DNA of 64,000 nt from Nitrosomonas sp. (GTDB taxonomy: Bacteria; Pseudomonadota; Gammaproteobacteria; Burkholderiales; Nitrosomonadaceae). Position 1 is the first letter of the stretch, and the number at the start of each line of letters is the position of its first letter. The position numbers were made by a program, and so were the translations under genes. This document shows, in pieces, positions 9,865 to 62,212 of this stretch. The notes below the pieces were generated by a model, which did not search any database, was not told the origin of the DNA, and saw only the letters and a program-made list of their open reading frames with translations. The stretch spans positions 1-64,000 of the forward strand of contig NZ_JAHBZY010000019.1 in NCBI RefSeq assembly GCF_019635155.1. The letters are read 5' to 3'.

Positions 9865-12800
9865 ATGCAACTATCCTTAAAACTAACTACAACGCTTTTT
9901 TTGTTTTTCATCATATTATTCGGTATCCGTATCGCCTCCGCCGGCAATTCCATTTTCCACCACACCATGCAAATCCAGTTGTTGCCGGAGTCCTCCGAGA
10001 TCCGCGTCAAGGATCGGATTCAAATCCCGGAACATTTGCATAATGTCGGCGAGCCGGTGAAACTGAAGTTTTATTTACATGCCGCACTAGCGATCACTGA
10101 TGTGCAGGATGCGACACTCGAAGCGGATGGCGATGAGATTGCACTGAAATCCCGGCCGATTTCGGTGCGGCAATACGCGATCACGCTGCCACCCGGCCAG
10201 AAAGCATTCACGTTGCAATACGGCGGTCAGATCCATCATGCAGTGCAGGGTCCGGGGCAGGAATATTCGCGCAGTTTCGGTTCAACGCCAGGCGTTATTT
10301 CGCCGGAAGGTGTGTTTTTGGCAAGCGCCAGCGCATGGTATCCGCATTTCGGCGATGCTTTAGTGTCGTTCCAGTTGGATATTCAGGTGCCTTCCGACTG
10401 GGATGTGGTGAGTCAGGGATCGCTCGTGCGCGAAAACAGCACCAGTGAAGCGCAACACATCGTTTGGGAGGAAAAACAGCCGCAGGACGATATCTACTTG
10501 ATTGCGGCAAAATTCCACCGGTATGCGCAATCCGCCGGCGCGGTGAACGCGATGGTGTATCTACGGAGCGCCGATCAACCGCTGGCGCAGAGGTATCTGG
10601 ACGCCACCGCGCAATACATCGCGATGTACAACAAGCTGATCGGCCCTTACCCTTACAGCAAGTTCGCGTTGGTCGAGAATTTCTGGGAAAGCGGCTACGG
10701 TATGCCATCGTTCACACTGCTCGGCTCCAAGGTGATCCGTCTGCCGTTCATTTTGCATTCGTCGTATCCGCACGAAATTCTGCATAATTACTGGGGAAAC
10801 GGTGTTTTCGTCGATTACGCCAAAGGCAATTGGGCTGAAGGCTTAACCGCTTACCTGGCCGATCATCTGATCAACGAACAACGTGGCAAAGGCGAAGAAT
10901 ACCGCCGCGACGTACTGCAAAAATACGCGGATTTCGTCAATCACGAAAAAGATTTCCCGATCATTCGCTTCGTGTCACGTCATAGCGCCAGCTCGGAAGC
11001 AATCGGTTACGGCAAGACTATGATGTTCTTCCATATGCTGCGGCTGGAATTGGGTAACGATGCCTTCACCAAAGTGCTGCGGCGCTTCTATCAGCAATTC
11101 AAATTCCAACAAGCGACGTTTGCCGACTTGCTCACCACGTTCAACACCGTCGCCGGCAAGGATTTGTCACAGCAATTCGAGCAATGGGTGCATCGCGCCG
11201 GCGCGCCGGATCTGGTGCTGCGCAGCGCCGAAACCGAACCGCACGACGATGGCTATAAGCTCACACTGACCGTCGAGCAAACCCAAGCGGGTGAACCGTA
11301 TCGCTTGCAAATGCCATTAGCCATTACATTGCGCGGTGAAGATATGGCCGTCGAATCGCACATCATTCTCGAACAGAAAAAACAAACGTTCGAGTTGGAA
11401 TTCGCCAGCCGCCCGGTGCGCATCGACCTCGATCCGCATTTCGACGTGTTCCGCCGCCTGGATAGCCGCGAAATTCCCTCGGCATTGTCGCAAGGATTCG
11501 GCGCGGAAAAACCGCTGCTGATCTTACCGGCACGGGAGCAGAAAACTATGCTGGAAGCTTACCGCACACTCGCGGCCAATTGGCAGAAAACCCAGGCAAG
11601 TCCGCTGGAAATCGTCACCGACGATCAATTGAAAACGCTCCCCGATAATCGTACCGTCTGGATTCTCGGTTGGCAAAACCGGTTTGCGAACAATGTTTTA
11701 AAAAACCTTGCCGAGCGCGATGTCTCGTATCAATCCGGCCAATTGCAGCTCAATCATAAACGCTACCCGCAAAATGGTCATGCGATCGTGTTAAGCGCGC
11801 GGCAATCCGCCAATCCCGATAAAACTTTGCTGTGGGTCGCCGCCGACACGCCGCAAGCAGTCACCGAACTCGCCATCAAACTGCCGCACTACCGCAAATA
11901 CAGCTATTTGGTGTTCAAAGGCGATGAGCTGACCAATATCGACAAAGGCCAATGGCCGATTTTGCAGTCACCGCTGTCGCAGCCGGTAGCGCAAAAAGAC
12001 GGATTTAAGGTCGACGCCGCACACGCGGCGCATGCCGGCATCACCAAGCCGCGCCGGGCATTGGCGGAACTGCCGCCGGTATTTTCCGAAAGCCGCATGA
12101 TGGCGGATATTCATCACCTGGCGCATGAATCGTACAAAGGCCGCGAACTCGGCACGCCGGAACTGGACGAAGCCGCGACTTACATCGCCAAGCAGTTCCA
12201 GCAAATCGGCCTGCTGCCGGGCAGTGATAGCGGCAGTTTTTTCCAGACCTGGCAACAGGATGTCGGTCTGCCGAAAGGCAACATCACCTTGCGTAACGTC
12301 GTCGGCATTCTGCCCGGCACCAACCCGCAACTCGCCGGGCAAAGCTTAGTAATCGGCGCGCATTACGATCACCTCGGCACTGGCTGGCCCGACGTGCGCG
12401 CCGCGCATCAAGGCAAAATCCATCACGGCGCGGACGACAACGCCAGCGGCATCGCGGTGATGCTGGAACTCGCGCGCCAGATCGTGCCGAAATGGCAACC
12501 GGAGCGCACCGTCATCTTCGTCGCATTCACTGGCGAAGAAGCCAACCTGCTCGGCTCCAAACATTATGTCCGCAGCAGCGAAAAATTCCCGGTCGATAAA
12601 ATCATCGCGATGTTGAATCTGGACACCGTCGGGCGGCTGGAAAACAATCCCGTTACGGTATTCGGCACCGGCACTGCGCGTGAGCTGGTGCACATCTTCC
12701 GCGGCGCGAGCTTCGTCACCGGCATTCCGGTCAACCCCGTGCAAGACGACTTCGGCTCCAGCGACCAAGCGGCGTTCATCCAAGCTGGCATTCCGGCGGT

Positions 12801-13401
12801 GCAATTCTTCGCCAGCGCGCACGAGGACTACCACGCTCCCGGCGACACCGTCGATAAAATCGACTCCGCCGGATTGGTCAAAGTCGCCGCGATCCTGAAG
12901 GAAGCCAGCGAATACCTCGCCAACCGCATCGAACCGCTCACGGTCACACTATCGGCAGCGTCCGCCGAATCCACCGAACCGAGGGAAATGCTGAGTAATT
13001 CGGCGAACGAGAGGAAGCACGAGGCGCACGGAACGCAGCAACCAAGACATATCAACAAGATAGGCAAGGATGCGAGTACCGCGCAACGAAGTGATTCGCT
13101 CGTGCAGTCAATTAATCAGGATTTCCCTAAAGAAAAACGCACAGCCAGTCTAGGCACGGTGCCTGATTTCTCCTATCAAGGCGAAGGCGTGCGCATCGAC
13201 AACACCCTCCCCGGCTCCCCGGCACAACAAGCAGGACTGCAACAAGGCGACATTTTGATTCAACTGGCCGGGCAACCGGTTAGCGACTTGGCGTCGTATG
13301 CGGCGATTTTGCGATCGTTAAAGGCGGGAGAGAAAGTGGAATTGAAATATCGAAGGAATGATGCGGTTATGGAAGCTGAGGCGGTGCTGGTGGAACGGTA
13401 G
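9865..13401 (+). CDS. Exported M1-type/M28 double metallopeptidase with C-terminal PDZ domain
   Basis: A very large protein of 1178 aa from the ATG at 9865, which begins the signal peptide; an ATG at 9820 would add 15 residues. Domain 1 is gluzincin-like (M1): HEILH is encoded at 10771-10785 and the third ligand Glu follows in NWAEGLTAY, 17 residues after the second His rather than the usual 18. Domain 2 is an M28 aminopeptidase with the full metal set: [37 protein letters not shown] and [13 protein letters not shown] domain ([20 protein letters not shown]) ends the chain. Between M28 and PDZ lies a 50-residue insert from a palindromic repeat element (12981-13129). It probably degrades peptides in the periplasm or outside the cell. 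The combination of two peptidase folds is unusual. Confidence 0.85.
12981..13129 (+). mobile_element. Palindromic MITE-like element, copy 1, inserted in frame in the peptidase gene
   Basis: About 149 bp with imperfect terminal inverted repeats: left GAGGGAAATGCTGAGTAATT, right end reverse-complemented TTAGGGAAATCCTGATTAAT. The interior (GAGGCGCACGGAACGC to AGTCAATTAATCA) is nearly identical to the copy at 17371-17520. Read in the peptidase frame it encodes [13 protein letters not shown] through [14 protein letters not shown], so the insertion left the host frame open. Confidence 0.8.
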
Positions 13402-13634: not shown

Positions 13635-15107
13635 TTGAAACGAATAAATATCCAATCGCTACTACAAGCAAAAGATTCATTGAAAGAAGGTAGTTTCAAG
13701 GAGTTCTTGAAGCACTATGGCATAGAAATCAAAGGTGCAGAAATTGAGGATCTAAGAATTCTAGCCAAAGCCCTGAGCGGCATTGGGTGCAGCATAGGAG
13801 CTTTAGATAGGTTTTATGTGGGTTACAAAATTCCGCAGATAGGCAAAGAGTTTGACTTGCTACGTTTTGGCCGAAAGTGCATTATAAACGTAGAACTCAA
13901 GAATAACTGCTCGGAAGACAAAATTAAGAAGCAACTAATACGAAACAAATACTACTTGAGCTTCATTGGAAGGAAAGTTTACGCCTTCACTTTTATATCC
14001 GAATCCCAAGAGCTGCACTTTCTACGAGATGACGAACAACTAGAAAAAACCAAAGTTGACCACTTAGCGGAATTACTCACCAATCAGGATATAGATGATG
14101 CGGAAGTTCCGGATGCATTATTCAATCCATCTGACTACCTAGTTTCACCTTTCAACTCCACGAAAAAGTTCTTAGCTGGGGAATATTTCCTAACACATCA
14201 GCAAGAAGATGTGAGAAATCAAATCATTGATTCCCTGAAGCTACCCAAAGCAGCGAAATTCATTTCAATCATTGGCAGCGCGGGAACAGGAAAGACCCTA
14301 TTAACATACGATATCGCAAAGCATCTTATAGGCAACAAGAAAAGTCCGCTCATCATCCACTGCGGACTACTAAATAACGGTCACGCAGAGTTGATAAAAA
14401 ATGGCTGGGTGATTACTCCAATAAAAAACTACAGCAACCACGATCTTGCAAATTATGATTTAGTTATCATCGATGAGGCTCAAAGAATCTATCCCAAACA
14501 ACTAGACACTATCATCGAGAAAGCAAGGCTAGCAAACTGCTGCTGCATCTTCTCACACGACAAACTTCAAACGCTAGCAAACTGGGAAAAAAAGAGCGAT
14601 ATTAGCGCGAAGATTGGCTCAATCAATCCAATTACCCAATACAAACTATCGGAGAAGATAAGAACAAACAAAGAAATAGCCACATTCATAAAAATGCTCT
14701 TCAACAACAAGAAATCTCTGCCCATTTCAAGTAATGGCAACATCGAATTAAATTATTTCAACACCACAATAGACGCAAAAAGTTACCTAGACGCACTCGA
14801 TGAAAGCAGATGGGAAATTTTGCGATTCACCCCATCACAGTACAATAATGAACATCACAAGAAATACTCGGAAGTATCGAACAGAACATCACATCAAGTA
14901 ATCGGGCAAGAATTTGACGGCGTTGCTGTAACGATTGATCAGTTTTTCTCCTACGATGACAATGGCGATCTGATTTATAAAGGTGGCGCATACTACGACC
15001 TACCCAAGATGTTATTCCAAAACATCACAAGAGCCAGAAAGAAATTGAATCTAGTAATTATAGGCAATGAAGAATTGCTAAATAGATGTATCACCATCCT
15101 ACAATAG
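13635..15107 (+). CDS. PD-(D/E)XK nuclease fused to a DUF2075-type SF1 helicase/NTPase (probable defence protein)
   Basis: A 490-aa protein starting at TTG 13635. The N-terminal part fits a restriction-endonuclease-like fold: IPQIGKEFDLL then INVELKNN, giving E72, D74, E87 and K89. The C-terminal two thirds are a P-loop NTPase of the DUF2075/UvrD-like group: Walker A GSAGTGKT near residues 213-220, Walker B LVIIDEAQRI near 279, KLSEKIRTNKEIATFIK and a final helicase-like block NITRARKKLNLVIIG. Proteins joining such nucleases and SF1 motors are frequent in phage-defence and restriction loci. It stands alone, is AT-rich compared with its neighbours and lies in an accessory patch, all signs of transfer. 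The function is inferred from domains only, and no Shine-Dalgarno sequence is clear for the TTG start. Confidence 0.72.
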   Translation: MKRINIQSLLQAKDSLKEGSFKEFLKHYGIEIKGAEIEDLRILAKALSGIGCSIGALDRFYVGYKIPQIGKEFDLLRFGRKCIINVELKNNCSEDKIKKQLIRNKYYLSFIGRKVYAFTFISESQELHFLRDDEQLEKTKVDHLAELLTNQDIDDAEVPDALFNPSDYLVSPFNSTKKFLAGEYFLTHQQEDVRNQIIDSLKLPKAAKFISIIGSAGTGKTLLTYDIAKHLIGNKKSPLIIHCGLLNNGHAELIKNGWVITPIKNYSNHDLANYDLVIIDEAQRIYPKQLDTIIEKARLANCCCIFSHDKLQTLANWEKKSDISAKIGSINPITQYKLSEKIRTNKEIATFIKMLFNNKKSLPISSNGNIELNYFNTTIDAKSYLDALDESRWEILRFTPSQYNNEHHKKYSEVSNRTSHQVIGQEFDGVAVTIDQFFSYDDNGDLIYKGGAYYDLPKMLFQNITRARKKLNLVIIGNEELLNRCITILQ

Positions 15108-15126: not shown

Positions 15127-15428
15127 GGGTCAGACTCGATAGATTATGCTTCGCACAAGGGGTCAGATCTTGAATTTTCCTTAACAAGAATACCAAGAAA
15201 TGAAGATCATTCTAAAAACAACACTTTCCAAAAAAGACCAAGTAATCCTGGATTCGCTGCAAAAAGCCGTGCCCCAGGCACTTGAAAGGAAACGCCGCTT
15301 GGGCCATTACGCCGTAGTCTGGCGGAATGGCAAACCAGTGATGATCGGTGAGGATGCACCGAAGATATCTGAAGATTCCGCCAGTTATGAAGCTGGTAAA
15401 GGCTTTTAGAGCAATGAAGTCTGACCCC
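15127..15428. repeat. GGGTCAGA motifs in inverted orientation around the orphan 69-aa gene
   Basis: GGGTCAGAC at 15127-15135 and GGGGTCAGA at 15159-15167 lie upstream of the gene at 15200, and the reverse complement TCTGACCCC at 15420-15428 lies just behind its stop. GGGGTCAGA-type palindromes often border small mobile units linked to REP-associated tyrosine transposases; no such transposase is in the window. Confidence 0.5.
15200..15409 (+). CDS. Orphan copy of the 69-aa zeta-kinase partner (putative antitoxin)
   Basis: A 69-aa protein closely similar, end to end, to the one at 16652, which directly follows a zeta-toxin-like kinase. Shared blocks are [25 protein letters not shown] and the N-terminal MKI-LKTT. 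Here no kinase gene accompanies it: the neighbours are the nuclease-helicase gene and a secreted protein gene. It may be the survivor of a duplicated two-gene module or an anti-addiction copy. The GGGTCAGA motifs on both sides suggest that it was mobilised as a unit. I do not recognise a named family; the toxin-antitoxin reading rests on gene order. Confidence 0.6.
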   Translation: MKIILKTTLSKKDQVILDSLQKAVPQALERKRRLGHYAVVWRNGKPVMIGEDAPKISEDSASYEAGKGF

Positions 15429-15495
15429 CATCGATTTTCAGATTCCCTCCGTGTTACGCACTGCGACACCGGTTATTTCAAACATTAATAACCGC

Positions 15496-15981
15496 ATGCG
15501 ATACCACCACCTTTTACTCTTGGTTTTTCTATTTCAGTCAATTCCTGCCCTCCCAGCATCGAGCACATGCCCGGAAGTTTCAAATTACGAATGTTTGGTA
15601 AAAAATTCGATGCAGGTGTATCAAGAAGATGCTGAGCAATGGTGGAAAATTTACCATCACACCGCCGCCAAAGCCAAGAAATGCGAGAATTTCATCGACG
15701 TTACGCTTTTCTTGCGACTGTGGTCTGGCGGCACTGACGGAGAAATGGCCGAGGGTCTTACCACCGATACCGAGGAAATTCTGATCACGAACAGTCCGTG
15801 TTTTTTTGAAGGATTATTGGAGCTATCAAAGGTAGAAATAGCTGCGTTCATTACGCACTATTGCCCACTGACAGAACCGGGGCTCATTGTCAAAGCACTC
15901 AAGCAAGCCTTGGAAAATGCACGCTACCGGCACATAGCAGCGCAATTACTGCATGAAACTTGCATTCAAGCCACAGATTGA
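15496..15981 (+). CDS. Small exported protein of unknown function
   Basis: From the ATG at 15496 this is a 161-aa protein with a signal peptide (MRYHHLLLLVFLFQSIPALP, ending ASS) and a cysteine-containing mature part: CPEVSNYECLV, CENFIDVTLFLRLWSGGTDG, NSPCFFEGLLEL, THYCPLTEPG and HETCIQATD. It is mostly helical and carries about six cysteines, so it probably folds in the periplasm. The longer open frame starts 15 codons upstream without a signal peptide. A broken copy of its 5' half and upstream DNA lies at 17945-18143. I do not recognise the family. Confidence 0.6.
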   Translation: MRYHHLLLLVFLFQSIPALPASSTCPEVSNYECLVKNSMQVYQEDAEQWWKIYHHTAAKAKKCENFIDVTLFLRLWSGGTDGEMAEGLTTDTEEILITNSPCFFEGLLELSKVEIAAFITHYCPLTEPGLIVKALKQALENARYRHIAAQLLHETCIQATD

Positions 15982-16023: not shown

Positions 16024-16083
16024 ATGAAAGCCAAGATCATTCAACTTAAACGAATACAAAAAAATCACAGGGAGATTGTGTAA
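16024..16083 (+). CDS. Possible 19-codon leader peptide overlapping the zeta-like gene
   Basis: ATG at 16024 opens [19 protein letters not shown] and stops at TAA 16081-16083, whose last A is the first base of the kinase ATG (TAATG). Such overlaps allow termination-reinitiation coupling, and the kinase site GGGAG lies inside this frame. It is very short, so it may be chance or the tail of a lost antitoxin. Confidence 0.25.
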
Positions 16084-16655
16084 TGCCTACCTGCTGGATC
16101 ATTGCCGGTCCCAACGGCGGAGGCAAAACCACCTTCGCACTGGAATATCTATCCAAGGTGGCGGACTGTTCTCATTTTGTTAATGCCGATCTGATCGCGG
16201 CGGGTCTTTCCCCGCTGGCACCGGAACGCGAACTGATTGCGGCAAGCCGTATCTTTTTGAACGAAATCGAAGAAAACATCAATCGCCGCGAGAATTTTGC
16301 ATTCGAAACCACGCTTTCAGGCCGTAGTTATCTGCGTCTGATTGATCGGCTGCAACGTGATGGCTGGCGAGTAGAGTTGATCTATCTTGCTTTGCCCAGC
16401 GCCAGAATATCGGAAATGCGTGTCGCGGAAAGGGTTGCGCATGGCGGCCATAATATTCCGTTGCACGACATCGAGCGGCGTTTCCCGCGCAGCCTAGCTA
16501 ATTTGCTCAATATATTTAGCCACAAAGTTGATCGCTGCACTTGTTTCATGAATGATGGTGAAAGTCCCATTTTAGTGTTTGAACAAAAAGGCGGCAGTCG
16601 TGATATTCTTCACGAAGGATATTATCACCAGTTATTAACAAGCATCACCAAATGA
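16083..16655 (+). CDS. Zeta-toxin-like P-loop kinase (COG4185 type)
   Basis: A 190-aa protein with Walker A GPNGGGKT at residues 9-16, [15 protein letters not shown] (the zeta substrate-binding region), [20 protein letters not shown], and the arginine-rich [22 protein letters not shown] lid. This is the compact zeta-domain group, whose larger relatives phosphorylate UDP-N-acetylglucosamine and stop cell-wall synthesis. The next gene starts within the stop codon (ATGA), giving a two-gene module with a 69-aa protein. In classic epsilon/zeta systems the antitoxin comes first, here the small gene comes second. Toxin activity has not been shown for all COG4185 proteins; some may act in housekeeping, so toxicity is an inference. 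Confidence 0.75.
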
Positions 16656-16861
16656 AAATTACACTAAAAACAACGCCTTCCAAAGAAAGTCAAGTGATCC
16701 TGGATGCGCTGCAAAAGGCCGTGTCCCAGACGCTTGAAAGGAAACGCCGCTTGGGGCATTACGCCGTCGTCTGTCGTGATGGCAAGCCGGTGATGATCGG
16801 TGAGGATGCGCCGAAGGTATCGGAAAATCCTGCCAGTTATGAGACTGACAAAAACTTTTAA
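16652..16861 (+). CDS. 69-aa partner of the zeta-like kinase (putative antitoxin)
   Basis: The start overlaps the kinase stop by four bases (ATGA). The protein reads [20 protein letters not shown], then [20 protein letters not shown] and [11 protein letters not shown], and has a second copy at 15200. The C-terminal half looks like a short beta hairpin ([13 protein letters not shown]), the N-terminal half like a helix. Tight coupling to the kinase and its small size suggest an antitoxin or regulator of the kinase. There is no recognisable DNA-binding motif, so autoregulation like that of VapB/MazE types is not indicated. Confidence 0.65.
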
Positions 16862-17370: not shown

Positions 17371-17520
17371 TAAGGGAAGCGCTGATTAATTCAACGAACG
17401 TGATGAAGGGCGAGGCGCACGGAACGCAACAACCGAGACATATCAATCTGGTAGGCGAGGGAGTGAGTACCGCGCAACGAAGCAATTCGCTCGTGCAGTC
17501 AATTAATCAGCGCTTCCTTA
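17371..17520 (+). mobile_element. Palindromic MITE-like element, copy 2 (intergenic)
   Basis: About 150 bp with well preserved terminal inverted repeats: left TAAGGGAAGCGCTGATTAAT, right end reverse-complemented TAAGGAAGCGCTGATTAATT (one base shorter in the G-run). The interior matches copy 1 at 12981-13129 and is also open in one frame ([12 protein letters not shown] to STAQRSNSLVQSIN). Its right end abuts AGGAG, the ribosome site of the gene at 17529. Confidence 0.82.
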
Positions 17521-17528
17521 GGAGCAAT

Positions 17529-17882: not shown

Positions 17883-17990
17883 TAGTTTTCCACCCGCCCC
17901 TAACCCGCAGTGAACCGGATGTCGGAACAGTATGTTGTTGGGATTTCTTCCGCGCTTCGCACCCCGGCGATTACTTCAAACGTTAACTCT

Positions 17991-18143
17991 ATGTGATTCC
18001 CCCGCTTTTTTCTCTTGGCTTTTCTAATTCAGTCAATTTCCGCCCTCCCAGCATCGAGCTCATGCCCGGAAGTTTCTGACTGTGCGAGTTTGTTAAAAAA
18101 CTCGCTTCAGTTGTATCAAGAGGATTTTGAGCAATGGTGGTAA
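17991..18143 (+). pseudogene. Truncated decayed copy of the exported-protein gene at 15496
   Basis: The DNA matches 15496 onward, and the similarity starts before the ATG (from about 17945). The copy reads ATG then TGA at codon 2, continues FPRFFLLAFLIQSISALPAS, CPEVSDCASLLKNSLQLYQE, and meets TAA at 18141-18143 where the intact gene has AAA. Similarity ends there. The rest of the 17883-18350 gap holds no gene that I can see. Confidence 0.75.
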
Positions 18144-18350
18144 GCCTCCAACCCCACCACCAACTCACACTCTTTCACTAATATTTCAATAATGCAGATT
18201 TCTCGGGAAATCTTTCATCACATTTTACAAAGACTTTACATTGTCTCAACAATTGAGGGGGATTGTTATTTTATAGTTTCACCATCGCAGCTTTGCTCAA
18301 CGATTAAATGAAACTTAAACAAATTTGAATGAAATATTAAGGAGACAATC

Positions 18351-23395: not shown

Positions 23396-23552
23396 AATTT
23401 CCTCCAATAAAAAGCTCTAGTGGAGTATGAATTCTGAATCAAAACAAACCTAAATTTATTGATATAGATCAAAAAATATCAAATTGATTCTGATGGTTAT
23501 TTTCGTATACCTCACATACGCAACTTCGATGCCCTGTACCATTAAACCGCAG

Positions 23553-24332
23553 TTACTTCAGATTCCGGCTTTTCTTGATTAAATCGTAGGCGATTTGAAC
23601 TTCCTGGGCTCGCTCGGTTGCGACCGCGACCATGTCTTCCGGCACCCCCTGCCCCATCAATTTGTCCGGGTGATATTGGCTCATCAATTTGCGGTAGGCG
23701 CGTTTAACTTCTTCGTCAGTGCTGTCGCTACCAACCCCCAGCGCCCGGTAAGCATCCTCCAGCGCATTCACGGAATCGGCACCGCCACCGGCAGCGAAAT
23801 GCATTTGATTCAACACCATGTCGAGCAGTTGCTCGAACGCTCCCGGGGGATAACCCAGGCGACTGGCGATGATTCGCAGCAATTCCTCTTCCTCAGCATT
23901 TAAGTGACCGTCGGATAATGCCATGATGATCAGATACACGAGCAGCATTTGCTTCAGATCCGGCGAATGCCCGCAAGCCGCTAAAAATTGGCTGAGTTGC
24001 GGCTGAAGATCGTAATCCTTGGCTGCGCCTTGCTTGAATAACGCGATCGCTTGCAGCCGGTGTTCACGTGTCATGCGCAGCTTTTGCATAAACTGTTCGA
24101 CATGCGAAACTTCGCTTTCGGAAACACGGCCATCCGCCTTGGCCAATTTTCCCATCAGAATAAATACTGTTTCCAGAAAAACCGATTGGCGGCGCGCCGC
24201 ATTGAATGGATTGACTCCGCCGGGACCATAAGCCAATAGCCGGTCGATGAAACTGCCGCCGATCAGGCCGAGAATCAAGCCTATAAAACCCAGCACCAGA
24301 AATCCGGAAAGTGCGCCCAGTATCTTAAACAC
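23553..24332 (-). CDS. djlA: DjlA-type membrane-anchored J-domain co-chaperone
   Basis: A 259-aa protein with an N-terminal membrane segment (LSGFLVLGFIGLILGLIGGS), a TerB/DjlA-type helical middle domain with acidic repeats (MGKLAKADGRVSESEVSHVE and MALSDGHLNAEEEELLRIIA) and a C-terminal J domain with the HPD motif (RKLMSQYHPDKLMGQG). The layout and length match E. coli DjlA, which stimulates DnaK ATPase at the inner membrane. It stands 90 bp downstream of the bolA-type gene in the same direction and may have its own promoter. Confidence 0.9.
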   Translation of the reverse strand: MFKILGALSGFLVLGFIGLILGLIGGSFIDRLLAYGPGGVNPFNAARRQSVFLETVFILMGKLAKADGRVSESEVSHVEQFMQKLRMTREHRLQAIALFKQGAAKDYDLQPQLSQFLAACGHSPDLKQMLLVYLIIMALSDGHLNAEEEELLRIIASRLGYPPGAFEQLLDMVLNQMHFAAGGGADSVNALEDAYRALGVGSDSTDEEVKRAYRKLMSQYHPDKLMGQGVPEDMVAVATERAQEVQIAYDLIKKSRNLK

Positions 24333-39604: not shown

Positions 39605-39658
39605 TTACAGAGTGCGGCGGCTATCCAAACTATAGCTTCCGGCGTCCTGTACCGCCAG
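39605..39658 (-). pseudogene. 3'-terminal remnant of a doxX gene
   Basis: The minus strand reads LAVQDAGSYSLDSRRTL and stop, against LAIHGAGSYSLDSRRLH and stop at the end of the intact doxX gene at 61835. The DNA is nearly identical over CGGCTATCCAAACTAT and neighbouring bases, and the 3' flank (TTTTTAGATTAAC against TTTTTATGATTAAC) is also similar. Nothing of the rest of the gene remains. Confidence 0.75.
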
Positions 39659-61834: not shown

Positions 61835-62212
61835 TTAGTGCAGGCGGCGGCTATCCAAACTATAACTTCCGGCACCGTGTATCGCCAACAGCAACAATCC
61901 GCCCGTAATCGCGATATTTTTCATAAACATGATCATCTGTATCTGATCCGCAAGATTATTATGAAAAATAACCGCTGCCACGAGCGTGAAACCAGCCAAC
62001 GCCAGCGACACCCATTTTGTTTGCCAGCCGGCGACCAACGCCAGTCCTCCGCCAATTTCCAATGCGATCACTAACGGCAGTAACATACCAGGCACTCCCA
62101 TGGCTTCCATGTAACCTTGCGTACCTTCATAACCGCCTATTTTAAATATTCCGGACAATAAAAAGATTTGCGCCAGAAAAACTCGTGCTACCAATTGACC
62201 TATTTTTTCCAT
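61835..62212 (-). CDS. DoxX-family membrane protein
   Basis: A 125-aa protein with four helices from ATG 62212 (AAGGAG upstream): VARVFLAQIFLLSGIFKIGG, MLLPLVIALEIGGGLALVAG, WVSLALAGFTLVAAVIFHNN and IAITGGLLLLAIHGAGSYSL. It belongs to the DoxX/YphA family; members are found next to pirin genes and are often tied to oxidative or thiol stress. It follows the pirin gene by 31 bp. The 3' end of this gene has a decayed twin at 39605. Confidence 0.85.
   Translation of the reverse strand: MEKIGQLVARVFLAQIFLLSGIFKIGGYEGTQGYMEAMGVPGMLLPLVIALEIGGGLALVAGWQTKWVSLALAGFTLVAAVIFHNNLADQIQMIMFMKNIAITGGLLLLAIHGAGSYSLDSRRLH

What the first reader, a model, noticed from the sequence alone, without database searches (positions are those of the whole stretch)
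12981..13129. A palindromic mobile repeat inserted in frame inside a peptidase gene
The 150-bp element has terminal inverted repeats and a second copy at 17371-17520. Copy 1 sits between the M28 and PDZ domains of a 1178-aa exported peptidase and is translated as part of it (about 50 residues), without a stop or frameshift. In both copies one frame stays open and encodes nearly the same peptide ([11 protein letters not shown] to STAQRS). This behaves like the Rickettsia palindromic elements, which spread inside protein genes; a counterpart in a nitrosomonad would be noteworthy.
Basis: partly seen in the sequence, partly recalled or inferred. Interest (0 to 1): 0.8.

Follow-up and report, generated by a model that had tools for sequence, protein, structure and literature searches.

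The report
Transposon fragment inserted inside peptidase gene
A 143-base "hitch-hiking" piece of mobile DNA, one of a large family scattered mostly between the genes of ammonia-oxidising bacteria, has landed inside a peptidase gene and is read through as 49 extra amino acids; a few other genes carry it in the same way, and the family has an unexpectedly conserved folded core.

Summary
Confirmed: window 12984-13126 and 17375-17517 are copies (119 of 143 bases identical) of a 143-bp repeat with terminal inverted repeats; copy 1 is read in frame inside a peptidase ORF. With a 4-bp target duplicate it adds 49 codons. Of 49 orthologue loci covering the site, 2 carry the insert and 47 do not.

It is a MITE of the IS5 family: its ends match the right end of a 1195-bp IS that makes 4-bp duplications (CTAR in 5 of 6 copies).

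It resembles Rickettsia palindromic elements only in a minority of copies. Of 144 copies, at most 21 could lie well inside an ORF (1083 of 1415 control sites would). Four are read in frame in genes with Pfam domains: this peptidase, MsrB in the same genome, two porin-like genes in a relative. The family shows no codon-position signal.

The peptidase allele looks recombinant.

Beyond the finding: the core recurs in other families of the order, inside mostly 143-bp elements with different ends, and forms a hairpin with strong covariation (16 of 21 pairs change on both sides). Its function is unknown; selection seems to act on transposing masters, not resident copies.

The parts
9820..13401 (+). 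Host gene: peptidase ORF, 1193 codons (M1-like domain, M28 peptidase, PDZ)
12984..13126 (+). MITE copy 1, 143 bp, translated in frame (residues 1055-1103 of the ORF)
12980..12983 (+). CGAG, left junction; reads like the empty allele of L177 rather than a YTAR duplicate
13127..13130 (+). CTAA, right target duplicate; same bases as the empty site of L215 and both duplicates of L181
13008..13102 (+). Structured core of copy 1 (covariance model R1, 100.4 bits)
17375..17517 (+). MITE copy 2, 143 bp, intergenic
17371..17374 (+). TAAG, left junction of copy 2 (not identical to the right one)
17518..17521 (+). TTAG, right junction of copy 2
17399..17493 (+). Structured core of copy 2 (model R1, 104.2 bits)

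Best explanation
The repeat is a non-autonomous miniature transposon (MITE) of Nitrosomonas, moved in trans by IS5-family transposases that recognise GGAAACGCTGATTAATT-type ends and duplicate a 4-bp YTAR target (ends, duplications and a partner IS shown; movement in trans inferred). Because 143 + 4 = 147 bp is a multiple of three and one frame of the consensus lacks stops, a copy landing in the right orientation and phase can be read through. One did so in the variable M28-PDZ linker of a peptidase at a CTAA site (shown by empty and filled alleles), where 49 extra residues were tolerated (inferred). At least three other copies appear to have done so near the N-termini of other proteins. The host's peptidase allele was probably assembled by recombination with an insert-bearing allele of another species (inferred). 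Most copies are intergenic, presumably because most gene insertions are selected against (inferred).
For: Empty site GAGCCTAAAGAAAAACGC in L215, filled site with exact CTAA/CTAA in L181, 147-bp length difference. 49 loci cover the site, 2 with insert, 47 without (by length; by sequence for the 16 empty ones shown; covariance model R1 finds the core at the site only in L180 and L181 of the 49). Partner IS: 1195 bp, the 6 copies examined identical, duplications CTAG, CTCT, CTAA, CTAG, CTAA, CTAA; its right end matches the two ends of MITE copy L023 over 19/19 and 17/17 bases; transposase fits NF033581 (IS5 family), E 1e-100. 144 copies: 95 of exactly 143 bp, 79 with identical flanking 4-mers, 89 YTAR on both sides; among the 95, 62 identical against a mean of 15.1 when partners are shuffled. 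Intergenic bias. Other in-frame copies: L003, L079, L114. Recombinant allele: window groups with L177 (empty; support 1.0), not with L180 and L181 (filled); pS window-L180 is 0.03 in the insert and 0.57 in the rest of the gene.
Against: In the host genome the best match to the IS transposase is only 53% identical, and no matching ends lie beside the 5 of its 10 PF01609 matches that were fetched as loci. Several MITE-rich genomes (G066, G064, G071, G059, G013) have no transposase match at E <= 1e-100. The junction choice favours equal YTAR flanks, so 79, 89 and 62 are upper estimates. Expression and tolerance of the 49 residues were not tested. pN and pS of the insert (0.042 and 0.032 window-L180) give no sign of selection for its sequence.
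Confidence: 0.87

Rival explanations
1. A counterpart of the Rickettsia palindromic elements: a selfish element adapted to spread inside protein genes through a protein-coding frame.
For: About 150 bp, palindromic, the 147-bp footprint keeps the frame; one frame open in 52 of 95 copies of 143 bp against 0.159 expected from a first-order Markov model; in-frame copies in four different genes, all in the same orientation and phase.
Against: At most 21 of 144 copies 40 or more codons inside an ORF against 1083 of 1415 control sites; 43 of 95 have stops in that frame; diversity by codon position 0.162, 0.143, 0.147. The open frame can be explained by descent from a master that lacks stops, and the common phase by its being the mostly open one.
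Confidence: 0.08
2. The peptidase alleles received independent insertions at the same CTAA site rather than one insertion shared by recombination.
For: The gene tree separates window from L180 and L181; other copies in G066 and G067 are nearly as close to the window insert (7 or 8 differences) as L180's is (6).
Against: Same base, same orientation; window and L180 share two rare states (position 30 G in 6%, position 137 G in 1% of 94 other copies); the window left flank lacks a YTAR duplicate and reads like the empty L177 allele, as a recombination junction would.
Confidence: 0.2
3. The repeat is a host regulatory or structural RNA element rather than a mobile one; the peptidase insert is incidental.
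For: Core hairpin with strong covariation; more G.T than A.C cells on the modelled strand (58 against 23).
Against: Target duplications and matching IS ends, a plasmid copy, from 0 to 93 forward end matches per genome within one genus, no clear strand preference towards neighbouring genes (83 sense, 64 antisense within 100 bp, summed, not tested formally), stem and non-stem positions of resident copies vary alike (0.100, 0.092).
Confidence: 0.07

Closest known systems
IS5-family MITEs (IS5 subgroup with 4-bp CTAR/YTAR duplications; subgroup rule recalled)
   Same: Short, no transposase, ends shared with a 1195-bp IS5-family element, 4-bp YTAR duplications, many copies
   Different: Core conserved in sequence and fold across families whose end sequences differ
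Rickettsia palindromic elements (review PMC10969869: passages and section 13 read; the original papers were not held)
   Same: About 150 bp, palindromic, in-frame insertions in protein genes
   Different: Most copies intergenic, no coding constraint seen, IS5-type ends with duplications
Enterobacterial RU-1/ERIC, RU-2 and RU-3 (PMC2759123: abstract, discussion and part 1 of 3 of the results read)
   Same: MITE-like intergenic repeats with an open frame, sometimes fused to genes
   Different: That paper places fusions in domain-bearing proteins at C-terminal regions; here one is internal, between two domains, with empty alleles known, and three are near N-termini
Correia/NEMIS elements of Neisseria (recalled; named)
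   Same: About 150-bp palindromic MITE-like elements that can fold as hairpins
   Different: Other ends (recalled); no homology tested here

Membership tests
IS5-family MITE | Terminal inverted repeats shared with an autonomous IS5-family element | tested here: met
   copy L023: 19/19 and 17/17 bases against the right end of the 1195-bp IS; transposase NF033581
IS5-family MITE | Target duplication of the same length and type as the IS | tested here: met
   YTAR 4-bp; 62 of 95 identical against 15.1 shuffled; IS copies CTAR in 5 of 6, CTCT in 1 of 6
IS5-family MITE | No transposase, many copies | tested here: met
   143 bp; 19 matches in host; 165 end matches in G066 and 156 in G067
IS5-family MITE | Mobilised in trans | not testable with these tools
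   needs a transposition assay
Rickettsia palindromic element | Insertion in genes in frame at high frequency (nearly half, per the review) | tested here: not met
   4 of 144 in frame in genes with Pfam support; at most 21 of 144 deep inside an ORF. Recurrent, but a minority
Rickettsia palindromic element | Conserved encoded peptide | tested here: not met
   stops in 43 of 95; no codon-position signal
Rickettsia palindromic element | Sequence homology to a Rickettsia family | not tested
   no Rickettsia sequences were fetched
Known Rfam RNA | Match to a curated family | tested here: not met
   no match in the window at gathering scores nor in 5 loci at E up to 0.1

The most novel reading that the evidence does not exclude
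The window copies belong to an order-wide superfamily of 143-bp MITEs in which a folded core (hairpin with tandem G.A pairs) is kept by selection while the ends have repeatedly changed to match different IS5-family transposases; the core is a cis-acting device that master elements need to be amplified, so that the element survives by switching helper transposons, and now and then becomes part of a protein.
Probability: 0.4. Interest if true: 0.72.

Novelty: new variant of a known kind. Interest (0 to 1): 0.55.

Why it matters
It gives an empty/filled case of a bacterial MITE becoming 49 residues of a multidomain enzyme and apparently passing between species by recombination, with further candidates in other genes. 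More broadly, it points to a MITE superfamily whose folded core is better conserved between end types than its ends, which makes a testable question of what the interior of a non-autonomous element contributes to transposition.

Tried and rejected
Tried: reading the family as protein-coding (rejected); as mainly gene-dwelling (rejected). My codon-usage score proved weak: its coding mean is 0.12 with SD 0.13 against -0.03 for random open stretches, and it missed L003, L079 and L114, which I found only on re-checking; the score-free count of 21 of 144 is therefore the one I rely on, and it does not count insertions within 40 codons of an ORF end. Pfam scans of flanking pieces of other candidate sites (30 pieces from 17 copies) gave domains in 5 of the 17: L135 (poly(A) polymerase upstream, a PEP-CTERM match downstream, so probably two genes, the first running into the element), L087 and L167 (glycine-zipper, below the cut-off), L111 (LRV repeats, below the cut-off), L139 (GIY-YIG downstream only). 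Strand preference relative to neighbouring genes: 83 sense, 64 antisense within 100 bp; copies lie nearer to gene 3' ends (99) than 5' ends (48) (summed, genes called by the same weak score). Phages: no match. IMG/VR with one strict 60-base core pattern: 0. Rfam: none. Papers with a 10-base core string: 35, 20 listed, none of those listed on bacterial repeats by title. Nitrosomonas with MITE: one unrelated paper; of the papers listed none mentions Nitrosomonas, one does (casposons; listing only). So no printed description was found in this library, which lacks most subscription journals. Quasi-palindrome correction as the cause of the covariation: the conserved tandem G.A mismatches (39 and 38 of 42) speak against it. 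No structure prediction was run: the insert sits in a variable linker. Change of odds after the self-check: the Rickettsia-type rival rose from 0.04 to 0.08 and interest from 0.52 to 0.55 because of the three further in-frame copies.

Full report
What is there. The repeat is real. Copy 1 is 12984-13126 and copy 2 17375-17517, both 143 bp, 119/143 identical, with the same frame open. Copy 1 is inside ORF 9820-13401 (1193 codons; M1-like, M28 and PDZ domains). With the 4-bp target duplicate the footprint is 147 bp, 49 codons.

Empty and filled alleles. A scan of named genomes with the peptidase gave 64 loci. Forty-nine cover the insert site; 2 have it (L180, isolate JAMMSM_AOB_3; L181, isolate RBC022) and 47 lack it: by length for all, by sequence for the 16 empty ones aligned, and by covariance model, which finds the core at the site only in L180 and L181 of the 49 (its other three matches, in L182, L183 and L201, lie elsewhere). 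One of the six search patterns spanned the insert edge, which favours finding filled alleles. L215 keeps the empty site GAGCCTAAAGAAAAACGC; L181 has exact CTAA on both sides. The linker varies in length among orthologues anyway, which fits tolerance.

How the host got it. On a tree of the gene without the insert (28 sequences; 31 were assembled and L196, L215 and L225 dropped because the stretch I cut contained stops, in L215 through a wrong frame on my side) the window pairs with L177 (support 1.0), which is empty; L180 and L181 form another group. Yet the window insert differs from L180's by 6 of 143 bases, with pS 0.03 against 0.57 in the rest of the gene. Its left junction reads like L177's empty allele and its right junction like L180 and L215. 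Sliding comparison shows a patchwork. I read this as recombination between species; independent insertion at the same base is the main rival. L177's contig has the length of G066's contig C2 (324,009), so the nearest empty allele probably sits in a MITE-rich genome (165 end matches).

What the repeat is. The host genome has 19 matches; 17 of its copies entered the set of distinct copies. In the genus 65 of 85 genomes match the end pattern, with 0 to 93 forward matches per genome. In G067, whose 78,633-base contig has the length of plasmid record NZ_CP133084.1 of Nitrosomonas sp. sh817, a copy lies on that plasmid, predicted conjugative. A 1195-bp IS in G067 (transposase found 7 times; the 6 copies examined identical) has an IS5-family transposase, a right end identical to the ends of MITE copy L023, and 4-bp duplications (CTAR in 5, CTCT in 1). 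A 93% identical IS is in G007. Thirteen of 85 genomes have a transposase match at E <= 1e-100, four of them with a best match only 52-66% identical; several MITE-rich genomes (G066, G064, G071, G059, G013) have none at that threshold, so helpers may be lost, diverged or unassembled.

Is it like the Rickettsia elements? I gathered 144 distinct copies of 13 genomes, one of them outside the genus (nhmmer, at least 120 model positions; 18 of 162 hits dropped as short or duplicate). The searches that supplied them scored only 40 candidates per genome in G059, G066 and G067, and I fetched 40, 34 and 26 regions of G067, G059 and G066, so the sample favours well-preserved copies. Twenty-one of 144 have, at the empty site, any ORF with 40 codons on each side, against 1083 of 1415 random sites in the same loci; with a positive codon-usage score on both sides it is 4 against 951. 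That score is weak and missed real cases. Reading the ORFs themselves and scanning them with Pfam gives four copies in frame with a conserved gene: the window peptidase; L003 in the host genome, an MsrB (SelR, E 2e-47; solved MsrB chains match from residue 63 or later, after the element) with the element after MSNNPSEHF; L079 in G067, an Alginate_exp porin (E 3e-25) with the element right after what I read as a signal peptide; and L114 in G067, a BBP2 porin (E 1e-85) with the element before what I read as a signal peptide. All four share orientation and phase. For L003 and L114 the true start might lie in or after the element, and no empty alleles were sought for the three. In the 95 copies of 143 bp, that frame is open in 52; this exceeds the Markov expectation of 0.159, but copies are related, so it reflects the master; variability is even over codon positions. 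So in-frame insertion is recurrent but a minority outcome.

Beyond the finding. With the MITE as query, 15 of 250 genomes of the order match at E <= 1e-10, 12 of them outside the genus; with the core from another family as query, 38 of 399 genomes in 20 of 158 genera match at E <= 1e-8, 33 outside the genus. Of 44 distinct places examined, 20 have at least 9 of 12 matching end bases and at least 3 of 4 duplicate bases (16 outside Nitrosomonas); 13 of the 20 have identical duplicates and 16 are exactly 143 bp (the search optimises ends and duplicates, so these are upper estimates; it did not fix the length). The other 24 places lack clear ends. Ends differ, for example CAGGCCGTTGAAAAACG, GGAAACGCTGAAGAAGG, GGAAGCGCTGATTTATT. 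Between end types, ends are 44-78% and cores 68-87% identical, whereas within the Nitrosomonas type ends are more alike (85%) than cores (75%) (only 5 sequences of 4 other types). G103 and G230 each hold elements of two end types. PF01609 elements with CAGGCCGTTGAAAAA-like ends on both sides are in G230 (1) and G103 (2); their flanking 4-mers are TTAG/CTAG, CGAT/TTAA and TTAA/CTAA, so not clean duplicates. No partner was found for the GGAAACGCTGAAG type, and G126 and G339, which carry CAGGCC-type copies, have no PF01609 match: results against a simple helper-switching picture.

Core structure. 42 cores (from 45 chosen for diversity; L285, L280 and one L271 unit left out) align with few gaps. 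RNAalifold gives a hairpin of 21 pairs, 16 with changes on both sides. Against 500 shuffles: 94.2% of cells paired (mean 80.3), 107 double-change cells (25.5), covariation score 0.431 (0.165), 0 of 500 reaching any; sliding by 1-3 columns drops pairing to 24-41%. Shuffles ignore relatedness and the structure was derived from the same alignment, but the slid controls and the number of pair types make chance implausible to me. A tandem G.A mismatch is kept in 39 and 38 of 42. G.T cells exceed A.C cells 58 to 23, 21 of them from one pair, so the strand preference is weak. Within the 95 Nitrosomonas copies, stem and non-stem positions vary alike (0.100, 0.092), ends less (0.061), with 56 compensated core cells against 21.7 by shuffling and 42 against 22.4 in the ends: resident copies drift, while lineages of copies change in a compensated way. 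I infer that the fold matters for propagation rather than for the host.

Verdict. Observation confirmed. Rickettsia-like in-frame insertion occurs in at least four genes, but the family is mainly intergenic and not coding-adapted. It is an IS5-type MITE with an unusual conserved, folded core.

Noticed in passing
L003 1061-1702 (host genome G000:C34, element at 23413-23558): A second in-frame copy in the window's own genome: MsrB (SelR domain) with the element near its N-terminus.
   Followed up: partly
L079 1382-3061 and L114 173-1876 (G067): Two porin-like genes (Alginate_exp, BBP2) with the element in frame next to the signal-peptide region.
   Followed up: partly
window 15198-15408 and 16650-16860: Two 83% identical stretches, each seeming to encode a small protein of roughly 68 codons (read by eye); the second begins at the end of a Zeta_toxin-family kinase ORF (16083-16655), so they may be a partner protein and its orphan copy. 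Similar DNA in L177, L179, L182, L198, L215, L243.
   Followed up: partly
window 15489-15666 and 17984-18161: A second duplicated pair (78%) in the same cluster, the first overlapping ORF 15451-15981.
   Followed up: partly
window 13635-15107: ORF with weak Schlafen-group-3/PhoH-like helicase matches next to the peptidase, possibly part of a variable island with the kinase.
   Followed up: no
L271 386-856 (G161): The MITE core occurs as a near-perfect tandem array, 3.9 copies of a 122-bp unit.
   Followed up: no
G000:C45 139171-139241 and 67613-67727: Miniature derivatives with both ends but only about 71 and 115 bp.
   Followed up: no
window 39614-39657 and 61844-61887: A 44-nt repeat pair, 89% identical.
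   Followed up: no
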